Positions 7,063 to 36,149 are shown, counted from the stretch's first letter. The stretch: DNA of 64,000 bases from Salinibacterium sp. TMP30 (GCF_038397785.1 NZ_CP151642.1:682001-746000), one strand, 5' to 3'. The notes: generated from the letters alone by a model not told the origin. Translations and numbers: made by a program.

Positions 7063-9729
7063 ATGACAACAGGCGAGCCGGAGACACCGTGGTATGCGCT
7101 CGCCCCCGAGGAGGCCTTCACACAGCTTGATTCGAGCTCGCAGGGGCTGACGACGGCCGAGGCCGACGCGCGCCGCGCTAGGGTTGGGCCGAACCAGCTG
7201 GAAGTGCGCAAGCCGACGCCCCCGTGGGTGGTGGCAGCGCGACAATTTCGGTCGCCACTTATCGCAATTCTGTTGGTTGCGGCGACAGTTGCACTGTTGC
7301 TGCAGGACTGGGTTGACGCCACGGCGATTCTCATCGTGCTCGTGCTGAACGCGTCGATTGGGTTCTGGGAAGAGACGCACGCCGAGCGCGAGATGCGTGC
7401 GCTTGCCTCGCTCACGGTGCCCGCTGCACGCGCTGTGCGTGACGGCCACATCATCCGGCTTCCCGCGGTCGACCTCGTGCCGGGCGATGTTGTCGCGCTC
7501 GAGAGTGGCGAGCAGGTGGCCGCCGACGTGCGCGTCATCGAGGCTCATGCCCTGCAGGTCGACGAGTCGATGCTGACCGGCGAGTCAGAGCAGGTGCACA
7601 AGACTTCCGCGCCCGTTTCCGAGCATGCCGCAATGGGCGACCGTCACGGGATGCTTTACAGTGGCACCTTTGTCACGTTCGGTCGCGGCCGCGGTGTTGT
7701 CGTGGCAACGGGCCGCTATACCGAGTTGGGGCGCATTAACGAGCTCGTACAGACCAGCTCGGAGCGCACGCCGCTGCAGCAGAGTATCCGCAGCCTCGAG
7801 CGCCGTATCGGAATTTTCGTGGCCGCTGTCGCTGTCGCTGTGGTCATCACCGGTCTGTTGCTGGGGGAAAACCTCGAAACAGTATTCCTGTCAGCGATCG
7901 CCATGGCCGTCGCGACGATTCCTGAAGCTTTGCCGGTAGTGATGACCGTCGCGCTGGCGATCGGTGTGCGTCGAATGGCAGCCCAGGGTGCGATTGTGCG
8001 CACGCTGCCCGCCGCCGAAACGTTGGGCTCGACAACCGTGATCGCGAGTGACAAAACGGGAACGCTCACCGAAAACCGGCTCACCGCCGAGCGCGTGTGG
8101 ATACCCGGCGGCGATGCAATCGACGTGTCGACCCTGCCTCACCAGCCGAGCGGCGTGCTGCGCGAGATCGTCATGGCCGGCGCCCTCGTCAACGAGGCGC
8201 ACCCGCACGGTGATAATGAGAGTGGCTTCATCGGTGACGCTGTCGACGTGGCGCTCGCCGTGCTTGCGCGCTCGCTCGGGGTGACGAGCGATGATGACGA
8301 CCTACCCGACCAAGTGGCCCGACTCCCGTACGAGCCGCAAAACCGCTACTCGCAGTCACTGCGCCGTGGCGGGCACGGCGACGATGCCGCGCTCATGCTC
8401 TATGTGAAGGGTGCGCCCGAACTGGTGCTATCGATGTGCAGCTCAGAAGCTGGGGGGAGTACCCTCGACGCTGCCGCGCGCCAGCGAGTGCAGGATGCAC
8501 ACGATCAACTGGCCGGCGACGGTTACCGGGTACTGGCAATCGCCTGCCGTACGGTGGCCGACAACGAGCTGTCAGGGCCGGAGCTGCCGCACCCCGCCGG
8601 CTTGCAGTTGCTCGGGCTCGTTGCGCTCACCGACCCGCCGCGTGCGGAGGCCCTCGAGTCGATTGCACTCTGTGTCGGAGCAGGGATGCGCGTCATTATG
8701 GTGACCGGCGACCACCCGTTGACCGCCACCACAATCGCGCGTCGGCTCGGCATCGCCGACTACGACAACGTGATTACGGGCGACGAACTCGACGACCTCG
8801 ACGACGCAGCGCTAGCCGAACGTGTCGCTCACGCCGGAGTGGTGGCGCGTGTCTCACCCTCAGACAAGCTGCGCGTCGTCCAGGCACTGCAGGCCAATGG
8901 CGACACGGTTGCTGTAACGGGCGACGGCGTGAACGACGCGCCCGCACTCAAGGCGGCCGCGATCGGCGTCGCGATGGGCGAATCGGGCACGGACGTGGCG
9001 CGCGAGGCCGCAGATGTCGTGCTCACCGATGACCGCTTCGCCACCGTTGTCGAGGCGGTGCGGCAGGGGCGCATTGTGTTCTCGGCGATCCGCAAAGCTA
9101 CCTTCTTCTTGCTGTCGACCGGATTTGGCATCATGCTCGCCGTCGCCATCAGCTTCTTTTTTGAGCAGCCGTTGCTCTTGATACCCGTGCAGGTGTTGTG
9201 GATTAACGTTGTTACGAGTGGCCTACAAGACGTTGCGCTCGCGTTTGAGCCTGCGGAGGGGGACGAGCTGCGGCGACCTCCGCGGGCCGCGCGCGAGGGC
9301 ATCCTGTCCCGCGAACTGTGGGTGCGCACCGTGATCTCGGCGAGTTGGATGGCGACCGTGCTGCTCATCACCTTCCAAATGGCGCTCGCCGCGGGCTATG
9401 AAATCGAGCACGTACGCACCATCACGATGACTGTGTTCGTGCTCATGAGTTTCTTCCAATCGGGCAGCGCGCGCACCGAGCGCCGCTCGCTCTTCACCAT
9501 CAGCCCATTCAGCAACCCGTTTCTCATCGCGACCGCCCTCGGCTCGCTCGGGTTGCAGTGGCTCGTGATGACCTGGCCGGTCAGCGCAGGCGTGCTGGGG
9601 CTTGTGCCGCTCACGCTCAGCGAGTGGGTGGGGTGTGCACTAGCCGCATCGACCCTGCTGGGGCTCATCGAGACGGAAAAATTTGTGCGACGCATGCTGG
9701 CTCGGCGCACGAGTGCGACTGCGGTCTAG
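7063..9729 (+). CDS. P2-like cation-transporting P-type ATPase, substrate uncertain
   Basis: 888 residues with every catalytic element of a P-type pump: N-terminal cation ATPase domain, TGES at 172-175, phosphorylated Asp330 in SDKTGTLTEN, KGAPE in the nucleotide domain, VTGDHPLTA and the hinge VTGDGVNDAPALK. About ten membrane helices are present and no heavy-metal-binding domain. M4 has IPEALP (Glu288). By alignment to SERCA, the positions of Asn768, Glu771 and Asp800 are Gly687, Ile690 and Ser719, while Asn715 and Thr718 are kept. So a simple Ca2+-ATPase label is doubtful. The gene overlaps the end of the arsA remnant by 4 nt on the opposite strand. Confidence 0.93.
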   Translation: MTTGEPETPWYALAPEEAFTQLDSSSQGLTTAEADARRARVGPNQLEVRKPTPPWVVAARQFRSPLIAILLVAATVALLLQDWVDATAILIVLVLNASIGFWEETHAEREMRALASLTVPAARAVRDGHIIRLPAVDLVPGDVVALESGEQVAADVRVIEAHALQVDESMLTGESEQVHKTSAPVSEHAAMGDRHGMLYSGTFVTFGRGRGVVVATGRYTELGRINELVQTSSERTPLQQSIRSLERRIGIFVAAVAVAVVITGLLLGENLETVFLSAIAMAVATIPEALPVVMTVALAIGVRRMAAQGAIVRTLPAAETLGSTTVIASDKTGTLTENRLTAERVWIPGGDAIDVSTLPHQPSGVLREIVMAGALVNEAHPHGDNESGFIGDAVDVALAVLARSLGVTSDDDDLPDQVARLPYEPQNRYSQSLRRGGHGDDAALMLYVKGAPELVLSMCSSEAGGSTLDAAARQRVQDAHDQLAGDGYRVLAIACRTVADNELSGPELPHPAGLQLLGLVALTDPPRAEALESIALCVGAGMRVIMVTGDHPLTATTIARRLGIADYDNVITGDELDDLDDAALAERVAHAGVVARVSPSDKLRVVQALQANGDTVAVTGDGVNDAPALKAAAIGVAMGESGTDVAREAADVVLTDDRFATVVEAVRQGRIVFSAIRKATFFLLSTGFGIMLAVAISFFFEQPLLLIPVQVLWINVVTSGLQDVALAFEPAEGDELRRPPRAAREGILSRELWVRTVISASWMATVLLITFQMALAAGYEIEHVRTITMTVFVLMSFFQSGSARTERRSLFTISPFSNPFLIATALGSLGLQWLVMTWPVSAGVLGLVPLTLSEWVGCALAASTLLGLIETEKFVRRMLARRTSATAV

Positions 9730-27937: not shown

Positions 27938-30900
27938 GTGTGGCGTGCAGATAAAGTTTCAGATGACTTCTCGGTCGATCCAGATTCGGTTGACGAGAAT
28001 GTCGACGACGCCGAAAACGAGCACTCCCATCCCCACATTCAGGTAACAGCGCCTCATACGCTGAGTTTTGGTGAGCCGAACATCATGGCCGGAAACGTTG
28101 CAGAGCCCACGTGGACGCTCTGGCGTTCGCAATTGTCAGAGCTGGGCGGACAGTCGCCACTCTTACACTTCGTCGATTCGCCTCGCACACGCGTTGAGCT
28201 CTCTACGACGCATCCGGGCGGTTTGGCCCAGTTCATCACCGGTAAGCGCACACTGCTGTCGAGTTTGATCCGCGACGATGTTGCTTTGCGCTCGGCCAAG
28301 GTCGCGGCCGGCGCTGTCGCAGCGAAGGGTCTTGAACTCTCGACGGCTCGCGGAATCGATTCCGTGCACTTGGGCATTGGCATTGCGCGCTGGAACCACG
28401 ACGGCGTTGAGTACTGTGCCCCAGTGTTGCTGCGGCCCCTCGCCATCCGTCGGCACGGTCGTGACTTTGAGCTGAAGTTGCGCGGCGCCGCCTACCTCAA
28501 CCCAGAATTTGCTCGTGCACTCGATGAGCAGTTCCATTTGCGCCTCGACGCCGAATCGTTTGTCGCGCTCACGGATGCCGATGGCACCTTCAAGCCGAAC
28601 CCGGTCATTGATCGCCTGCGCGGTCTCACCTCGCACCTCACGAATTTCGCGGTCAGCCCACGCCTCGTGGTGTCGTCCTTCGCCGATGTTGCGCCCGGTC
28701 TTGCTGACGATGCCGCCGAATTACAGCATCCGATCCTCGATGCACTAGCAGGCAACACTGCGGCAGCGTGGACCATCAAGGAGGGTTACGCTCCTGTGCC
28801 CGCGCTGTCGGCTGATGAGCGCTCGCCGCAGACCGATAACCTGCTGCTCGATGCCGATGCTGAGCAAGAGAATGTGATCGCCCAGATCGAAGCCGGCAAC
28901 TCGTTGGTCGTTCGAACGCTCCCCGGCACTGGTGGCACCCAAACAATCGTCAACGCCGTTGGTGCACTCGTGGCGCGGAATAAGCGGGTGCTTGTCGTAA
29001 CCCCGCGTCGTGCATCGCTGCACTCGATCGCTGATCGCTTTGGCGACATCGGGTTACCGGGCCTTGCTGTGGCACCGCGCACGTTGCGTCGCGACATCAT
29101 CCGGTCCATTTCCCGCAGCGAAAAAGCGGCACGGCCGCAAATCGAAGACGTGGATGATGCACTGCTGCGCCTGCGCAAGATCATGCTCGACTACCGCGGG
29201 TCGATGGCTGTCGCCGATGATGTGCTCGGTGTCTCGGTTCTCGATTGCGTATCGGAGCTCAGCCGATTGGCGCTGCTGCCCAACCCGCCATCGACGACCG
29301 CACGACTCTCGCGCGAAGCCGTAGAGAAGCTTGCCGCGGATCGCACCTCCGCTACCGGTGTGATCATTGCCGCCGCCAAGCTGGGCGAGTTCAAGTATGG
29401 CCCTGGAGATTCGCCATGGTACGGAGCCCAGTTCGCTAACGGTGGCGAGGCGCTCAAAGCTCACGAGGTTGCCAAGCGTGCCAACACGCAGCTGTCTGAA
29501 CTCTTAAGTGTCGCCAACCGTCTGGTGTCGAACACCCGCATGCGGCCATTCCAGAGCATTGAAGAGTTGGGCGTCTATTTGCGCCTCCTCGTTGATCTTC
29601 GGGAAACACTCGACCGTTTCGTGCCCACCGTTTTTGATCGCGCAATTACCGAACTTATTGCTGCGACAGCTCCGCGTCGCGACTTTCCCGACATGACCGC
29701 TGCCAACCGCCGCCGCCTCAAGAAGCTTGCTCTCGAATATGTGCGGCCCGGTGTGCGCGTGAACGACATGCACGCGGCCCTCATGCGCATTCAGAAGCAG
29801 CGCGTGCTGTGGCACCGTTTCGTTGCCGAAGGTGCAAGCCCCGCTGTTCCCGTCGGCATTGGTGAAGTTCAACGTTCGTACCAGCAGGTCTCAGAAGACC
29901 TTGCCGCCCTCGACATCCCGCTCGGCATTGCAGATTCTCACCTCACCCTGTCAAGTTTGCCCATCCCGTTCCTGATCGAAAAGGTCGAGGCGCTCGCCGC
30001 CGAGTCAGATGTGCTCAACAATCTGCAAGAGCGAACGGCGCTCATGGGCAGTCTGCGTGAGCTCAAACTCAACCCCCTGATCGATGATCTGGCCAAGCGT
30101 CACGTGCCCGAAGACCAGGTCGCCGCGGAGCTTGAACTCTCGTGGTGGAAATCAGCACTCGACTCCATGCTCGAAATGGATCGTGCACTTCTCAACGCCA
30201 ACACGTCGGTGGTTGATCGTCTTGAAGCCGACTTCCGCCTTGTCGATGAAGCTCACGCCTCGGCAAACGCGAAGCAACTCTCCTGGCAGATCGCCGAAAA
30301 CTGGAAAATCGGGCTCGTCGACTGGCCCGACGAAGCAGGTGCTCTCAAACGAGCGCTGGGCAAAGAGCGGCTCACGTCATTTGACGTTCAAACGTCAGCA
30401 CCGCACCTTTCTCGCACCATTGCACCCGTTTGGTTGGCCTCGCCCTACGAGATCGACTCAGTCGTTGACACAATGCCGTTCGACACGGTGTTCCTCGTTG
30501 ATGCCGGCGCGATGACCGTGGCCGAAGCGGCGGGAGCAATCCGCCGCTCGAAGCAGGTTGTCGTTGTTGGCGACCCCGTTATCCAGTCGCCAACCCCGTT
30601 TGAGATCGCGGTGCGCGACGCGACAGCTGATGCACCACCACCCATTGATGATGAGGTGCGCGAGGCTCTAGTCGAAGATTCAGCGTTCGCTCGCTTGAGT
30701 GGCCTGCTGCCGACTCTGACGTTGACCCGCAGCTACCGGCCCGGTGGCGAAGAGCTCGCCGAACTCGTTAACCGCCGCTTTTATGGCGGCCAAATCGAGT
30801 CCCTGCCCTGGGCGGGAAGCTTCCTCGGGCACGGCAGTCTCGCCGTCAGCTACGTTGCCGACGGTGTCGGAATGCCTGATCCCGACTCTGGCGCGGTCGA

Positions 30901-31735
30901 AAGCCCCGACGCCGAGGTCTCGCGCGTTGTTGAACTTGTTCTCGACCACGCCACCAAGCGGCCACAAGAGTCGCTCATGGTCATCACGGCAAGTCCGCTG
31001 CACTCGGTTCGGGTCATGCAGTCAGTGTTGGATGCTGTCAGCCGCCGTCGCCCCGAACTGCTCGATGTCATCATCGGCGATCGTGCTGAACCGTTTACGG
31101 TTACCACGATTGATCAGGCTGTGGCCCAAAGTCGCGACCGGGTAATTTTCTCTATCGGATACGGCCGCACACCACACGGTCGCGTGCTCTCAGACTTCGG
31201 TTCGCTTGGTGAGCCCGGGGGAGAACGGCTTCTCGCTGTCGCAATGACGCGTGCTCGTCGTTCGCTCGAAATCGTCACGTCGTTCCGTTCTGAAGACCTC
31301 GACGACGGTCGCATGAAGCACGGTGCGGTCGCCCTCGCTGAAGTGCTCGACGAAGTGGATGCGCGCTACGCCGAAATTCCTGTGCCTGACGACAGCGAGC
31401 CCATGCTGGTTGATCTTGCGCGCCGTCTCGAAAAGCGCGGACTGCGCGTTGCTCTCGGGCATCGCGGCAAACTGGGGCTTGTCGCCTCGCGTGGCGGTCG
31501 TTGCGGAACCGTCGAAACCGACGCCATGGTGCACGAGTCAAGCTTGCGTGAGTCGCTTCGACTGCGCCCCGAGCTGCTGCGTCGACTCGGCTGGCACTAC
31601 CTCCGCGTGCACGCCTTCGAACTCTTCAGTGATCCCGATCAGGTGGCTGACAAAGTGGCCCGGATGCTCGGAGCGGAGCCTGCTCCCACGACCGAGCCCA
31701 TTGGGATCATCCCCGCCACACGTCCCGAGCAGTAA
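27938..31735 (+). CDS. Large SF1 helicase-like protein with degenerate ATPase motifs and C-terminal endonuclease-like domain
   Basis: 1265 residues. Acidic N-terminus; DUF4011-like domain about 55-250; SF1 helicase-like core after 300; C-terminal region resembling the PD-(D/E)XK-type REase_MTES_1575 domain (TVETDAMVHESS, RRLGWHYLRVHAFELF). Core motifs are recognisable but altered: motif I is LPGTGGTQT with Gly333 for the catalytic Lys; motif II is VFLVDAG instead of a DExx box; VVGDPVIQSP (III), TLTRSYR (IV), VTTIDQAVAQSRDRV (V) and VAMTRARR (VI) remain. ATP-driven unwinding is therefore doubtful. Starts with GTG, apparently leaderless. A small gene follows after 3 nt. The family seems conserved in related genera from memory, so this need not be a decaying gene. 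Confidence 0.8.
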   Translation: MWRADKVSDDFSVDPDSVDENVDDAENEHSHPHIQVTAPHTLSFGEPNIMAGNVAEPTWTLWRSQLSELGGQSPLLHFVDSPRTRVELSTTHPGGLAQFITGKRTLLSSLIRDDVALRSAKVAAGAVAAKGLELSTARGIDSVHLGIGIARWNHDGVEYCAPVLLRPLAIRRHGRDFELKLRGAAYLNPEFARALDEQFHLRLDAESFVALTDADGTFKPNPVIDRLRGLTSHLTNFAVSPRLVVSSFADVAPGLADDAAELQHPILDALAGNTAAAWTIKEGYAPVPALSADERSPQTDNLLLDADAEQENVIAQIEAGNSLVVRTLPGTGGTQTIVNAVGALVARNKRVLVVTPRRASLHSIADRFGDIGLPGLAVAPRTLRRDIIRSISRSEKAARPQIEDVDDALLRLRKIMLDYRGSMAVADDVLGVSVLDCVSELSRLALLPNPPSTTARLSREAVEKLAADRTSATGVIIAAAKLGEFKYGPGDSPWYGAQFANGGEALKAHEVAKRANTQLSELLSVANRLVSNTRMRPFQSIEELGVYLRLLVDLRETLDRFVPTVFDRAITELIAATAPRRDFPDMTAANRRRLKKLALEYVRPGVRVNDMHAALMRIQKQRVLWHRFVAEGASPAVPVGIGEVQRSYQQVSEDLAALDIPLGIADSHLTLSSLPIPFLIEKVEALAAESDVLNNLQERTALMGSLRELKLNPLIDDLAKRHVPEDQVAAELELSWWKSALDSMLEMDRALLNANTSVVDRLEADFRLVDEAHASANAKQLSWQIAENWKIGLVDWPDEAGALKRALGKERLTSFDVQTSAPHLSRTIAPVWLASPYEIDSVVDTMPFDTVFLVDAGAMTVAEAAGAIRRSKQVVVVGDPVIQSPTPFEIAVRDATADAPPPIDDEVREALVEDSAFARLSGLLPTLTLTRSYRPGGEELAELVNRRFYGGQIESLPWAGSFLGHGSLAVSYVADGVGMPDPDSGAVESPDAEVSRVVELVLDHATKRPQESLMVITASPLHSVRVMQSVLDAVSRRRPELLDVIIGDRAEPFTVTTIDQAVAQSRDRVIFSIGYGRTPHGRVLSDFGSLGEPGGERLLAVAMTRARRSLEIVTSFRSEDLDDGRMKHGAVALAEVLDEVDARYAEIPVPDDSEPMLVDLARRLEKRGLRVALGHRGKLGLVASRGGRCGTVETDAMVHESSLRESLRLRPELLRRLGWHYLRVHAFELFSDPDQVADKVARMLGAEPAPTTEPIGIIPATRPEQ

Positions 31736-31738
31736 CTC

Positions 31739-31966
31739 GTGGGAGGCACTGACAACTCGCGGTCGAGCGAGCAGCACGGCGAGTCCAAGAAACATGACTC
31801 GCGGGAGTCCGGGCGCGAGCACACCGCCAAGGTCACCAAGCGCCGCCGTGTGACAACCGCACCACCCACCGGTTCCGACCCGCACCCGACTGGTGAGCCC
31901 GAGCGGCATCCTGCTAACGAGAACGATGAACGGCTTAGGGGCGACAAACCTCCACATTGGGGTTAG
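31739..31966 (+). CDS. Small hydrophilic protein ending in PPHWG, downstream of the helicase-like gene
   Basis: 75 residues, very polar and charged, probably disordered, with the ending NENDERLRGDKPPHWG. I remember short actinobacterial proteins that end in RLxxDKPPHW, which supports a real gene. GTG start lies 3 nt after the helicase-like stop, so the two are probably co-translated. Function unknown; it may bind the large protein or DNA through basic KRRR residues. Confidence 0.65.
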   Translation: MGGTDNSRSSEQHGESKKHDSRESGREHTAKVTKRRRVTTAPPTGSDPHPTGEPERHPANENDERLRGDKPPHWG

Positions 31967-32034: not shown

Positions 32035-32445
32035 TTAGCTATTCTGCTTCGCGAGCAGATCGCGAATCTGAAGGAGAAGCTCTGCCTCGGTGGGGCCTGC
32101 TTCGGGCTCGACAACTTTCGGTTTGCGTGCGTTGGCTCGCTTGTTGGCAAAGTTCATGGGTGCGACGATCGCAAAGTACACAACAACGGCGACGAGCAGA
32201 AACTGGATGATGGCAGCGAGCAACGCGCCAAAAGCGAGCACTGCGGGTTCGCCGGTGGCAGTGGGAATTTCTACCGCGAATGCTTCCGAAAGAGTCTCAG
32301 CGTTAAACATCGCTCCGATGAGGGGGTTGAAGACGCTGGCGACAATCGCGTTGACGACCGCGGTAAACGCGGCTCCGATGACGACCGCAACCGCAAGGTC
32401 GATGACGTTGCCACGCAAAATGAAAGTCTTGAATCCGCTTAACAT
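32035..32445 (-). CDS. mscL: Large-conductance mechanosensitive channel MscL
   Basis: 136 residues: N-terminal amphipathic helix and TM1 (MLSGFKTFILRGNVIDLAVAVVIGAAFTAVV), periplasmic loop, TM2 and a charged C-terminal helix ending LLLQIRDLLAKQ. It opens under membrane tension to release solutes during hypo-osmotic shock. Ribosome site AGGAGC upstream. It is near the FmdB-type gene in the same direction, with a 31-nt gap. Confidence 0.95.
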   Translation of the reverse strand: MLSGFKTFILRGNVIDLAVAVVIGAAFTAVVNAIVASVFNPLIGAMFNAETLSEAFAVEIPTATGEPAVLAFGALLAAIIQFLLVAVVVYFAIVAPMNFANKRANARKPKVVEPEAGPTEAELLLQIRDLLAKQNS

Positions 32446-32876: not shown

Positions 32877-33467
32877 TTAGTTGTGCTCGGTAATGGTCAC
32901 AATTCCCGAGGGGGTGACTATGCCATTAACAGGTTGGTCATGAAGTTCGGTGGGTACGGCATCCACATATTCGTTGTCGAAGATCACGGCGTAGACGGGA
33001 GGTTTCGTCTCCATGGAGCCGAGAGTCTTGTCGAAGTAGCCACGACCCCAGCCCATGCGCATGCCGGTGCGATCCACGGATGCCGCGGGCACAATGATCA
33101 GGTCGACGTCGTTGATAGCAATCGGGCCCAGTACTTCGCTGGTCGGCGCCGGCATTCCAATGAGGTCTTCGTCTTCATCTTCGCCGTCGTAGGGCGCCCA
33201 GTCGAGCAGCCCATCAGCGCGAGAGATGGGCAGCAGCACGGTGATGTCGTGTTCGCATGCCCAGCGAAGGAAGCCGCGAGTTTGTGGTTCGTCTGTGGCG
33301 GAGAGGTAGGCCGCTACCGAAGTGGAACCGAAGCGGGAAGCGAGTTCGATAAGGTTCGCGGTCACACCCGCTTCAGACTCTTCCCGCTCTTTGGCGGTGC
33401 AGATGCGGCGGCGTTCGCGTAATTCGGCCCGGAGTGCACGTTTATCGTGACTGACGTCGTCGGTCAT
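32877..33467 (-). CDS. 5-formyltetrahydrofolate cyclo-ligase
   Basis: 196 residues with the family motif RMGWGRGYFDKTL (substrate and phosphate binding) and an N-terminal KRALRAELRERRR helix. It converts 5-formyl-THF to 5,10-methenyl-THF with ATP, returning folate to one-carbon metabolism. TAGAAT lies 6 nt before ATG 33467, a leaderless promoter almost back to back with that of galU. Confidence 0.93.
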   Translation of the reverse strand: MTDDVSHDKRALRAELRERRRICTAKEREESEAGVTANLIELASRFGSTSVAAYLSATDEPQTRGFLRWACEHDITVLLPISRADGLLDWAPYDGEDEDEDLIGMPAPTSEVLGPIAINDVDLIIVPAASVDRTGMRMGWGRGYFDKTLGSMETKPPVYAVIFDNEYVDAVPTELHDQPVNGIVTPSGIVTITEHN

Positions 33468-33473
33468 GTATGC

Positions 33474-33499
33474 ATTCTACGAGACTGTCCCGGTAGCCT
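33474..33499. promoter_or_regulatory. Divergent leaderless promoter pair
   Basis: TAGAAT on the minus strand (33474-33479) serves the cyclo-ligase gene and TAGCCT on the plus strand (33494-33499) serves galU; each is 6 nt from its ATG. Only 38 nt separate the two start codons. Confidence 0.6.
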
Positions 33500-33505
33500 G
33501 TACCC

Positions 33506-34396
33506 ATGGCATCGAAGATTACTAAAGCGGTCATTCCTGCGGCCGGTCTGGGCACCCGATTTTTGCCAGCAACGAAGGCAATGCCCAAAGAGATGTTGCC
33601 CGTTGTTGATAAGCCAGCAATTCAGTATGTCGTTGAGGAAGCAGTCGCTGCTGGACTCACTGATGTGCTGATGGTGACGGGCCGCAACAAGAATGCGCTC
33701 GAGAATCATTTCGACCGTATGACTGAACTTGAGGCGACTTTGGAGTTGAAGGGCGACATCGACCGTCTGTCCAAGGTTGAGTTCTCGAATGACCTCGCCG
33801 ATATGCACTATGTGCGCCAGGGTGACCCTCGCGGTCTCGGTCACGCCGTGTTGCGCGCGCGGATGCACGTGGGCGATCAGCCTTTCGCCGTGTTGCTCGG
33901 TGACGACCTCATCGATGCCCGAGATGTTTTGCTTTCGCGCATGCTCGAGGAGCAGACGGCACGCAATGCGACCGTTATCGCGCTCATGGAGGTCGATCCG
34001 GCCCTGAGTCACCTGTACGGAATCGCTACCGTTGAGCCGACTGATGATGACGACGTTGTGCGCATTACGGGTCTGGTGGAGAAGCCGGCCCAGGGCACCG
34101 CGCCTTCTAACCTTGCCATCATCGGTCGCTATGTGCTCCGCCCCGAAATTTTCGAGATCCTTGAGCGCACCGATCCAGGCAAGGGCGGCGAAATCCAGTT
34201 GACGGATGCCCTGCTCGAGATGGCCAAAAACAATGTTGCCGGCGGCGTCTACGGTGTTGTATTCCGCGGCCGCCGCTATGACACGGGTGACCGTCTCGAC
34301 TACATCAAGGCGATCGTGCAGCTCGCCGTTGAGCGAGAAGACTTGGGCCCCGAACTGCGCCCCTGGCTCAAGCAGTTCAGCTCAACGCTGGAATAG
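33506..34396 (+). CDS. galU: UTP-glucose-1-phosphate uridylyltransferase
   Basis: 296 residues: nucleotide-binding PAAGLGTRFLPATKAMPKEMLPVVDKPAIQYVVEEA, a GalU hallmark, VLLGDDLID, and GLVEKP. It makes UDP-glucose from UTP and glucose-1-phosphate in the cytoplasm. UDP-glucose feeds the UDP-glucose dehydrogenase at 52090 and wall polymer glycosyltransferases. The acetyltransferase gene follows after 3 nt. Confidence 0.95.
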   Translation: MASKITKAVIPAAGLGTRFLPATKAMPKEMLPVVDKPAIQYVVEEAVAAGLTDVLMVTGRNKNALENHFDRMTELEATLELKGDIDRLSKVEFSNDLADMHYVRQGDPRGLGHAVLRARMHVGDQPFAVLLGDDLIDARDVLLSRMLEEQTARNATVIALMEVDPALSHLYGIATVEPTDDDDVVRITGLVEKPAQGTAPSNLAIIGRYVLRPEIFEILERTDPGKGGEIQLTDALLEMAKNNVAGGVYGVVFRGRRYDTGDRLDYIKAIVQLAVEREDLGPELRPWLKQFSSTLE

Positions 34397-34399
34397 CGG

Positions 34400-35059
34400 A
34401 TGGCGTATGGCATTCCGACGCTCAGCGACGGAGACATAACTATTCGCCCCATTAGGGTGCGAGACGCTCGTGCGTTAGAGAAAGAACTCCGGGATAACCG
34501 GGGGTGGCTTCGCCAGTGGGAGGCCACGAGCCCCGTTGGGCCGGTCAGCTTTGACGTGAAGTCGAGCATCCGGGGACTGTTGCAGCAATCACGCTCCGGC
34601 GCAGGGTTACCGTTTGTTGTCGAGCGCGAGGGTGATGTTGCCGGTCAGCTGAATGTTTCGTCGATTACCTACGGTTCGCTTGCGTCGGCGACGATTGGCT
34701 ATTGGGTTTCTGAGCGTTTTGCGGGCAAAGGACTTACCCCCACGGCGGTGGGTTTGGCTACCGACTACTGCTTTTTTCACCTCGGGTTGCACCGCATGGA
34801 GATCTGTATCCGTCCCGAGAATGCGCCAAGCTTGCGTGTCGTTGAGAAGCTCGGTTTTCGCTATGAGGGGTTGAGGCGTCGCTTCATCCACATTGATGGT
34901 GATTGGCGTGATCACTTCTGTTTTGGGCTTACCGTTGAAGAGGTTCCTCAGGGTGTGTTGCGTCGCTGGCAAGCGGGCAAGGCCCCCGAAGCCGATGCCA
35001 ACATTCCGGCGGTGGATCGCGCCCGTGCAGCCAACCCGCTGATCCCTCCGCGCCGCTGA
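34400..35059 (+). CDS. GNAT family acetyltransferase, RimJ-like
   Basis: 219 residues of the RimJ/RimL group: ITIRPIRVRDARALEKEL at the N-terminus, acetyl-CoA-binding region IGYWVSERFAGKGLTPTAVGLAT, and HRMEICIRPENAPSLRVVEKLGFR. It should acetylate an N-terminus, perhaps of a ribosomal protein. Co-transcribed with galU (3-nt gap). The C-terminal 40 residues after the GNAT fold are polar and variable. Confidence 0.9.
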   Translation: MAYGIPTLSDGDITIRPIRVRDARALEKELRDNRGWLRQWEATSPVGPVSFDVKSSIRGLLQQSRSGAGLPFVVEREGDVAGQLNVSSITYGSLASATIGYWVSERFAGKGLTPTAVGLATDYCFFHLGLHRMEICIRPENAPSLRVVEKLGFRYEGLRRRFIHIDGDWRDHFCFGLTVEEVPQGVLRRWQAGKAPEADANIPAVDRARAANPLIPPRR

Positions 35060-35084
35060 CGGCAGCCGTTCGCTTCTTCGGTTC

Positions 35085-35120
35085 GCGACAAGTGTTGCGA
35101 CAAGGGTTGCGACATCCGTT
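35085..35120 (+). repeat. Three tandem 12-bp imperfect repeats
   Basis: GCGACAAGTGTT, GCGACAAGGGTT and GCGACATCCGTT follow one another in the 151-nt gap between the acetyltransferase gene and the next. One unit is about one helical turn. No gene is seen in the gap. Confidence 0.7.
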
Positions 35121-35210
35121 GGGGCGCAATCGGGGCAATTCTCAGGATCTTTTGATTTCACTGCCGCGTGCCGACAGCGCGTCGTGCGTGGATGCTCGTA
35201 CCGTATAGCC

Positions 35211-36149
35211 ATGGAATTCACCAGCATCGGCGGCGGCGTGATGATCGCGCTCGCGGCAGGGCTCTGGCTGGTGTATCTGGTTCCTAACTGGTTCAAGAAC
35301 CGCGAATACTTAGCAACCGAACGTAATGCGGTTCGACTGCAGCAGACGATTCGTGTTCTTGCGCAGACCGCAGAGATGCCCGAAGAGATCCGCGCTGAGG
35401 CGGTTGCCCGCAGGGCCGCTGAGCTGGCTAAGGCTCGAGCATTGCAAGGCCCCGTTGCGGTCGGTCGGGCCGTTGCGGTGCCAACTCGCGAACAGGCACT
35501 CGCACTCTCGGCTCGACGGCTTCGCCGCACTCGTGCATTGACCGCGCTCGTTCTTCTTGCCAGCGTCGTCGTCGTTGGCGTGCAGCTTTCGCTCGTTGTT
35601 ACCGCTGGTGCGGCGATCGTTTCGGGAACCTGGTTGGTGCTCGCTACCGCGACCATCGCGGGGATCAGCGCAAGCGCGATGCTCTCCCGTCTCGCGGAAC
35701 GCTCACGTGCTCGAAATGTCAAAAGCGCACCCGCTGTGCGCACAGCCGCGCCGCGCCGCCGCGTTGTGCTCTCCTCGGATGCGCCCGTCGAAGACGTCAC
35801 TGCCAAGGTCAGTTGGACCCCCGTGCCCGTGCCCAAACCCATGTATCTGACGCGCAGTAACGCACCAGAAGCTGCTGTTGCTGCCGCACGTCATGCCGCC
35901 GAGATCGATAGCGAGCTGCGTCAGGCAGCGGAATCTGCCGAACAGGCTCTGCGAGCAAACACCGTTGCAATGGCCGCAGCAACGCGTGAGGCGGAGTTAG
36001 CGCGCGAAGCCAAGTGGTCACCAGCGAAGCCCATCGCGGTGCCCGCCGCTGCCGCCCCCAACCGTTTCGCCGGCATGGGCATCGTCGACGTTCAGGGTGG
36101 CACTCCCGACTTGGATGCCGCTCTCGCGCGTCGTCGTCGCGCTAGCTAG
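35211..36149 (+). CDS. Membrane protein of unknown function with three helices
   Basis: 312 residues: membrane helix at about 8-24 (MIALAAGLWLVYLVPNW), polar basic region, two more helices near 105-150, and a long Ala/Glu-rich C-terminal part. Typical of an actinobacterial protein usually annotated as hypothetical or large exoprotein near galU/rimJ genes. The ATG at 35211 follows TACCGT by 6 nt (leaderless type); the upstream extension to 35184 is less likely. Confidence 0.75.
   Translation: MEFTSIGGGVMIALAAGLWLVYLVPNWFKNREYLATERNAVRLQQTIRVLAQTAEMPEEIRAEAVARRAAELAKARALQGPVAVGRAVAVPTREQALALSARRLRRTRALTALVLLASVVVVGVQLSLVVTAGAAIVSGTWLVLATATIAGISASAMLSRLAERSRARNVKSAPAVRTAAPRRRVVLSSDAPVEDVTAKVSWTPVPVPKPMYLTRSNAPEAAVAAARHAAEIDSELRQAAESAEQALRANTVAMAAATREAELAREAKWSPAKPIAVPAAAAPNRFAGMGIVDVQGGTPDLDAALARRRRAS

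What the first reader, a model, noticed from the sequence alone, without database searches (positions are those of the whole stretch)
27938..31966. Helicase-like protein with a lost Walker Lys and DExx box but retained later motifs, fused to an endonuclease-like end
The protein keeps motifs III-VI of an SF1 helicase, but the Walker A Lys is Gly333 (LPGTGGTQT) and motif II reads LVDAG. The reading frame is intact over 3.8 kb. From memory, relatives in sister genera share this pattern, so it looks like a selected loss of ATPase action in a DUF4011/REase_MTES_1575-type architecture, with a PPHWG microprotein 3 nt downstream. It may have become a DNA-binding scaffold or a nuclease platform, perhaps in phage conflict.
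Basis: partly seen in the sequence, partly recalled or inferred. Interest (0 to 1): 0.7.

Follow-up and report, generated by a model that had tools for sequence, protein, structure and literature searches.

The report
Core actinobacterial pseudo-helicase with companion microprotein
This is a large helicase-and-nuclease-shaped protein that has lost the residues both enzymes need, yet it sits at one fixed chromosomal place in nearly every sampled species of a whole bacterial order, beside (and often fused to) a tiny conserved protein, so it is probably an undescribed housekeeping scaffold and not a broken gene or a phage-defence gene.

Summary
ORF 27938-31735 (+; 1265 aa) has Gly333 in place of the Walker A Lys, VDAG in place of DEAS in motif II, and an uninterrupted frame. 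No family relative regains these residues: 0 of 135 Microbacteriaceae loci. The gene is core: 298/300 family genomes and 292/297 order genomes, including a 0.93 Mb genome. dN/dS within the genus is about 0.03-0.05. In many families it shares one locus, next to mscL.

Fully intact K+DE homologues survive only in families f5, f18 and f45. No half-intact state was seen, and the tree needs at least three changes, so motor loss was probably repeated. The protein folds as a Upf1/IGHMBP2-type SF1B helicase (pLDDT 93; Z about 21) and is a shortened relative of the ProA/Hhe DUF4011 proteins. Its nuclease-like end has also lost the first metal-binding Asp, so "nuclease platform" and "phage conflict" are not supported.

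The 75-aa PPHWG ORF is real. Its tail family occurs once per genome across the class, even without the helicase, often near mscL, and is fused to the helicase C terminus in seven sampled families.

Best reading: an ATPase-dead, nuclease-dead scaffold or clamp working with its PPHW tail (RecC-like in logic). The function is inferred.

The parts
27938..31735 (+). Pseudo-helicase / pseudo-nuclease CDS, GTG start, 1265 aa (P0001); single copy in its genome
28850..28867 (+). Q motif region D305-A-D-A-E-Q310, kept (Q310 in the most conserved 4% of positions)
28919..28945 (+). Degenerate Walker A LPGTGGTQT (328-336); Lys replaced by Gly333
30494..30508 (+). Degenerate motif II LVDAG (853-857), aligned to FDEAS of intact homologues
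31247..31258 (+). Motif VI TRAR (1104-1107), kept
31403..31672 (+). PD-(D/E)XK-like (REase_MTES_1575-type) C-terminal domain, residues 1156-1245; first Asp replaced by Gly1180 (nt 31475-31477), E1193-x-D1195 kept (nt 31514-31522)
31739..31966 (+). 75-aa microprotein, variable basic N-terminal part and conserved tail NDERLRGDKPPHWG; same family is fused to the helicase C terminus in other lineages
32035..32445 (-). mscL, convergent neighbour and shared syntenic anchor of the locus and of the tail gene (context, not part of the machine)
   Evidence: name from sequence resemblance

Best explanation
The gene encodes a core, catalytically dead SF1B (Upf1/IGHMBP2-like) helicase with a dead PD-(D/E)XK-like end, descended from a motor-competent DUF4011/ProA/Hhe-type helicase-nuclease that took up a fixed chromosomal locus beside mscL. 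Shown: loss of the Walker A Lys, of both motif II acidic residues and of one nuclease Asp; strong constraint on the rest; order-wide presence; a shared locus with intact homologues; repeated fusion to the PPHW tail. Inferred: it no longer translocates or cuts, and works as a nucleic-acid-binding scaffold or clamp that uses the PPHW tail (as a separate 75-aa protein here, as its own C terminus elsewhere) to dock to a partner complex. In Microbacteriaceae the rest of the nucleotide pocket (Q motif, P-loop backbone, Tyr-Arg, motif VI Arg) is among the most conserved parts, so there it may still bind nucleotide without hydrolysing it.
For: K at Walker A in 0/135 and DE in 0/135 Microbacteriaceae loci; only 12 of the loci sampled inside and outside the family keep both, none keeps one alone. 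298/300 family and 292/297 order genomes carry it. dN/dS 0.03-0.05 over all domains, including the nuclease-like one. Kept at 1.1-1.7 Mb and 0.93 Mb (L233). mscL lies by both intact (L150, L170, L171, L224) and degenerate copies. Fold: pLDDT 93.3, Z 20.9 to Upf1, 20.8 to IGHMBP2, 20.3 to Dna2. Tail fused in 25 sampled loci of families f1, f6, f10, f14, f16, f18, f19, with at least 9 changes of the fused state forced by well-supported branches.
Against: No binding, partner or phenotype is known. Nucleic-acid binding is inferred from fold only. The fused tail is not confidently placed in the model (pLDDT 49-62), so its docking site, and whether it binds the helicase or a third party, is open. 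In families f3, f4, f9, f10 and f20 the P-loop itself has decayed, so a nucleotide-binding role cannot be common to all. Adjacency alone makes gene fusion easier, so fusion is weaker proof of joint function than usual. One reduced genome (L233) has the helicase but no tail was found next to it.
Confidence: 0.55

Rival explanations
1. Anti-phage defence: a ProA/Hhe-like effector or decoy that senses phage nucleic acid without hydrolysing ATP.
For: The closest named families are anti-phage proteins ProA and Hhe (NCBIfam E 1e-82 and 2e-36; PADLOC PDC-S37 and Hhe).
Against: Scores are far below the equivalog cut-offs (278 of 1500 bits; 125 of 2000). The gene is near-universal, single copy, at one locus and slowly evolving, unlike patchy defence genes; full-length accessory relatives of about 2000 aa occur as separate genes in some genomes. 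A DUF4011 gene can be core without being a tested defence gene, as in P. aeruginosa, where one flanks a defence hotspot (PMC10250203).
Confidence: 0.12
2. RNA- or transcription-linked factor: a helicase-like protein that binds RNA polymerase, ribosomes or mRNA (Upf1/SETX- or HelD-like logic) without ATP turnover.
For: Best fold matches are RNA helicases Upf1, IGHMBP2, SETX and Sen1; mycobacterial HelD bound to RNA polymerase is among the weaker matches. The C-terminal PPHW tail would suit docking to a large complex.
Against: Upf1-like SF1B proteins include DNA enzymes such as Dna2 (Z 20.3), so the fold does not choose RNA over DNA. No neighbouring gene points to transcription or translation.
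Confidence: 0.2
3. Subunit of a DNA-break machine, a RecC- or AddB-like partner that scans DNA for an active helicase-nuclease.
For: RecC is the known precedent for an inactivated nuclease-like domain that guides DNA (PMC1185551). All 14 genomes checked also carry two or more PDDEXK_1 proteins, mostly in adjacent pairs of about 900-1600-aa frames, AdnAB/AddAB-like.
Against: No genetic linkage to those genes was seen; they form a pair by themselves. The gene is Upf1-like (SF1B), not UvrD-like (SF1A), and is absent from most other actinomycete orders sampled.
Confidence: 0.2
4. Still an ATPase by a non-canonical route, or an ATP-binding switch in which the pocket is rebuilt.
For: In Microbacteriaceae D305-A-D-x-x-Q310, P329-G-x-G332, T334-Q335, G878-D879, Y933-R934 and R1107 are among the most conserved positions while position 333 is at the 63rd percentile.
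Against: Lys, Asp and Glu are all replaced together, and the pocket decays further in other families.
Confidence: 0.15

Closest known systems
Anti-phage protein ProA (NF058533) / PADLOC PDC-S37 and Hhe (NF042953)
   Same: Same order of parts over the C-terminal half (helicase core part 2 and MTES_1575-like end); intact homologues L149, L169, L221 score 800-867 bits to ProA.
   Different: About 1,250 aa instead of about 1,800-1,900; scores 278 and 125 bits against cut-offs of 1500 and 2000; active sites lost; core gene at a fixed locus.
Upf1 / IGHMBP2 / Dna2 (SF1B helicases)
   Same: Fold: Z 20-21 over about 500 residues.
   Different: Walker A Lys and DE box absent; long helical insert in the middle; degenerate nuclease-like end; low identity (about 15%).
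RecC of RecBCD
   Same: Logic: helicase-like and nuclease-like domains without the catalytic residues (PMC1185551; helicase part from general knowledge).
   Different: RecC is SF1A-like and encoded with its active partner; no partner is known here. Analogy only.
PPHW-tail microproteins of actinomycetes
   Same: P0002 shares the D/N-D-x-R-L-x-x-x-[KR]-PPH[WHY] end and the position by mscL.
   Different: No Pfam or NCBIfam model exists for the three sequences scanned or for P0002; the N-terminal part differs between lineages and the WGE part is missing in this genus.

Membership tests
Active SF1 helicase | Walker A Lys (GK[ST]) | tested here: not met
   Gly333; 0 of 135 family loci have Lys
Active SF1 helicase | Walker B DE in motif II | tested here: not met
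   V854-D855 in place of D-E; 0 of 135 family loci
Active SF1 helicase | Arginines of motifs IV and VI | tested here: met
   R934 and R1107, within the most conserved 3-8%
SF1B (Upf1-like) fold | Two RecA-like domains with Upf1-type insertions | tested here: met
   AlphaFold pLDDT 93.3; Z 20.9 to Upf1, rmsd 4.8 over 527 residues
PD-(D/E)XK nuclease (MTES_1575 type) | First metal-binding Asp | tested here: not met
   G/A/P at 1180 in most family members, D in 2 of 135; D in intact homologues
PD-(D/E)XK nuclease (MTES_1575 type) | E-x-[D/K] pair | tested here: met
   E1193-T-D1195; D invariant in the family
ProA (NF058533) | Equivalog cut-off 1500 bits | tested here: not met
   278 bits
Hhe (NF042953) | Equivalog cut-off 2000 bits | tested here: not met
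   125 bits
Phage-defence gene | Patchy, mobile occurrence | tested here: not met
   298/300 family and 292/297 order genomes; shared mscL locus
Phage-defence gene | Protects from phage | not testable with these tools
   needs plaque assays
RecC-like scanning subunit | Complex with an active helicase-nuclease | not testable with these tools
   PDDEXK_1 gene pairs are present in the genomes; no interaction data

The most novel reading that the evidence does not exclude
A housekeeping machine of the order Actinomycetales (GTDB sense) built on an ancient class-wide PPHW microprotein: a phage-defence-type helicase-nuclease was captured next to the microprotein gene, became indispensable, and then lost its motor and its blade several times independently, so that the order now depends on a helicase-shaped ATP-independent scaffold.
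Probability: 0.35. Interest if true: 0.85.

Novelty: new variant of a known kind. Interest (0 to 1): 0.64.

Why it matters
A 1,250-residue helicase-shaped protein that is near-universal in a large bacterial order but lacks the residues for ATP hydrolysis in almost every lineage is unusual: motors normally either keep working or disappear. Intact and dead homologues at the same locus give a natural series for asking what a helicase fold does without ATP. The PPHW microprotein, single copy across much of the class and without a Pfam or NCBIfam model, offers a handle: its repeated fusion predicts a joint function that pull-downs can test. The family also shows a defence-type architecture turned into a core gene.

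Tried and rejected
Pseudogene or sequencing artefact: rejected (open frame throughout the genus, dN/dS 0.03-0.05). Accessory defence gene: rejected as the main reading. Active nuclease with dead helicase: rejected for this family, though it remains possible in f6, which keeps D..ExD. My first reading that the Walker B Asp was kept and only the Glu lost (early notes) was corrected after the gapless comparison with DEAS. The microprotein as a mere split-off piece of the helicase: revised, since the tail family also exists in genomes with no helicase match. Docking of the tail from a natural fusion (L109): the model leaves the tail at pLDDT 49-62, inconclusive. PDB search by single sequence gave only chance matches. 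Paper searches for PPHWG and for pseudohelicase with Actinobacteria returned nothing, and DUF4011 only three papers; subscription journals and preprints are not held.

Full report
Observation. The ORF 27938-31735 (+) is open over 1265 codons from a GTG start. Walker A reads LPGTGGTQT with Gly333 in place of Lys. Motif II reads LVDAG. Compared without gaps with intact homologues (FDVVVFDEASQ against FDTVFLVDAGA), the Walker B Asp is Val854 and the catalytic Glu is Asp855. Motifs III, IV and VI are kept; motif V only in part. The 75-aa ORF starts three bases after the stop codon and ends PPHWG.

Where it comes from. The window lies in a complete 2.69 Mb genome; the closest named records are Salinibacterium sp. 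PAMC 21357 and marine actinobacterium PHSC20C1, 96 and 95% identical. The gene is single copy there. Family numbers such as f6 and f18 are the unnamed labels of the genome search.

It is a core gene. A protein search found it in 298 of 300 Microbacteriaceae genomes and all 85 genera, and in 292 of 297 genomes of the order, 94 of 95 genera and about 20 families. Three of the five misses are draft genomes under 90% complete. Genomes of 0.8-1.7 Mb keep it; one of 927,303 bp (L233), which by its size I take from memory to be Tropheryma whipplei, has an open copy of about 1,172 aa. In the rest of the class it is absent from most sampled families; full-length matches came from families f38, f25 and f45. 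Within the genus dN/dS is 0.03-0.05 overall and about as low in the first RecA-like domain and in the nuclease-like end. This is not a decaying gene.

The losses are systematic. In 135 family loci position 333 is never Lys (Gly, Ala, Tyr, Ser, Val and others) and motif II is never DE. Across 20 further families (f2-f20, f25, f38, f45) the canonical K plus DE set survives in only 12 loci, all in f5, f18 and f45; no locus has K without DE or DE without K. The two features were therefore lost together in every lineage sampled. On the protein tree the Lys label needs at least three changes, two of them forced by well-supported branches, and degenerate f18 copies lie among intact ones, so the motor was probably lost more than once. 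mscL lies beside intact copies (L150, L170, L171, L224) as well as degenerate ones, which argues for orthology in those families; mscL was not found beside L221 (f45).

The nuclease-like end is dead too in this family. Intact homologues have IDLAV...AVExDG. The window protein has KLGLVAS...TVETDA: the first Asp is replaced (G, A or P at position 1180 in most family loci, D in 2 of 135), while E-x-D is kept. Families f3, f4, f9, f10 and f20 have also lost the Glu; f6 keeps all three.

What it is related to. Pfam matches are all below their cut-offs (AAA_12, MTES_1575, AAA_11, DUF4011). NCBIfam gives ProA at 278 bits and Hhe at 125 bits, far below the equivalog cut-offs, while intact homologues score 800-867 bits to ProA and up to 911 bits to PADLOC PDC-S37. 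The AlphaFold model of residues 52-1250 is confident (pLDDT 93.3, pTM 0.83). Its best matches are Upf1 (Z 20.9), IGHMBP2 (20.8) and Dna2 (20.3), and a profile of the family finds the same proteins by sequence. So it is an SF1B, Upf1-like protein, a short and inactivated sister of the ProA/Hhe group.

The microprotein. A downstream ORF ending in PPH[WYF] follows the gene in most loci (107 of 135 in the family, some of the rest being cut by the contig end). In 25 sampled loci, from families f1, f6, f10, f14, f16, f18 and f19, the same tail is the C terminus of the helicase itself. The fused state needs ten changes on the tree, nine of them forced by well-supported branches. A profile of 34 tail positions finds one copy per genome in 135 of 247 genomes of the class (one genome has two), including many families with no helicase match. 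In several of these the tail gene lies beside mscL and near FmdB and SAF-domain genes, the neighbourhood also seen in the window. The simplest history is that the tail gene is the older resident and the helicase settled upstream of it. Three class-wide tail sequences and P0002 match no Pfam or NCBIfam model.

How it may work. Shown: catalytic residues lost, everything else constrained, fold retained, tail linked and repeatedly fused. Inferred: the protein binds nucleic acid as a scaffold or clamp, and the tail docks it to a partner. RecC is the precedent for an inactivated nuclease-like domain that guides DNA (PMC1185551). In Microbacteriaceae the Q motif, the P-loop apart from the Lys position, Tyr933-Arg934 and Arg1107 are among the most conserved positions, while position 333 is at the 63rd percentile and 854 at the 49th, so nucleotide binding without hydrolysis is possible there. 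It cannot be the common function, because other families have lost the P-loop itself. A fold of a natural fusion left the tail at low confidence (pLDDT 49-62), so the docking site is unknown. All 14 genomes checked also carry PDDEXK_1 proteins of AdnAB/AddAB type, so this protein is unlikely to replace the break-repair enzyme.

Verdict. A real and unusual feature: a new variant of a known kind (an inactivated, core member of the DUF4011/ProA/Hhe helicase-nuclease group) with an unnamed class-wide microprotein partner. Confidence is about 0.9 that canonical ATPase action is lost and about 0.55 in the scaffold model.

Noticed in passing
31739-31966 and class-wide, e.g. L237, L255, L269: A family of 45-75-aa microproteins ending in PPH[WH], one per genome in 135 of 247 Actinomycetes genomes, without a Pfam or NCBIfam model and often convergent with mscL.
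   Followed up: partly
L105-L114 (Microbacteriaceae genomes of about 1.1-1.7 Mb): In this small-genome clade the PPHW tail is fused to the pseudo-helicase in all ten copies, giving proteins of about 1,200 aa.
   Followed up: partly
L218, about 8980-9700: In family f38 a CBS-domain-like ORF (9072-9530) lies between the helicase gene and the tail ORF.
   Followed up: no
L233 (927,303-bp genome): The pseudo-helicase is retained in this strongly reduced genome, but no PPHW tail was found in the 12 kb around it.
   Followed up: no
G000:C1:1948078-1952051: Two adjacent long frames with PDDEXK_1 matches, probably the AdnAB/AddAB-type break-repair enzyme of this genome.
   Followed up: no
32877-36149: Downstream cluster resembling 5-formyltetrahydrofolate cyclo-ligase, galU, a RimJ-type acetyltransferase and a SepX/GlpR-like membrane protein; names from sequence resemblance only.
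   Followed up: no
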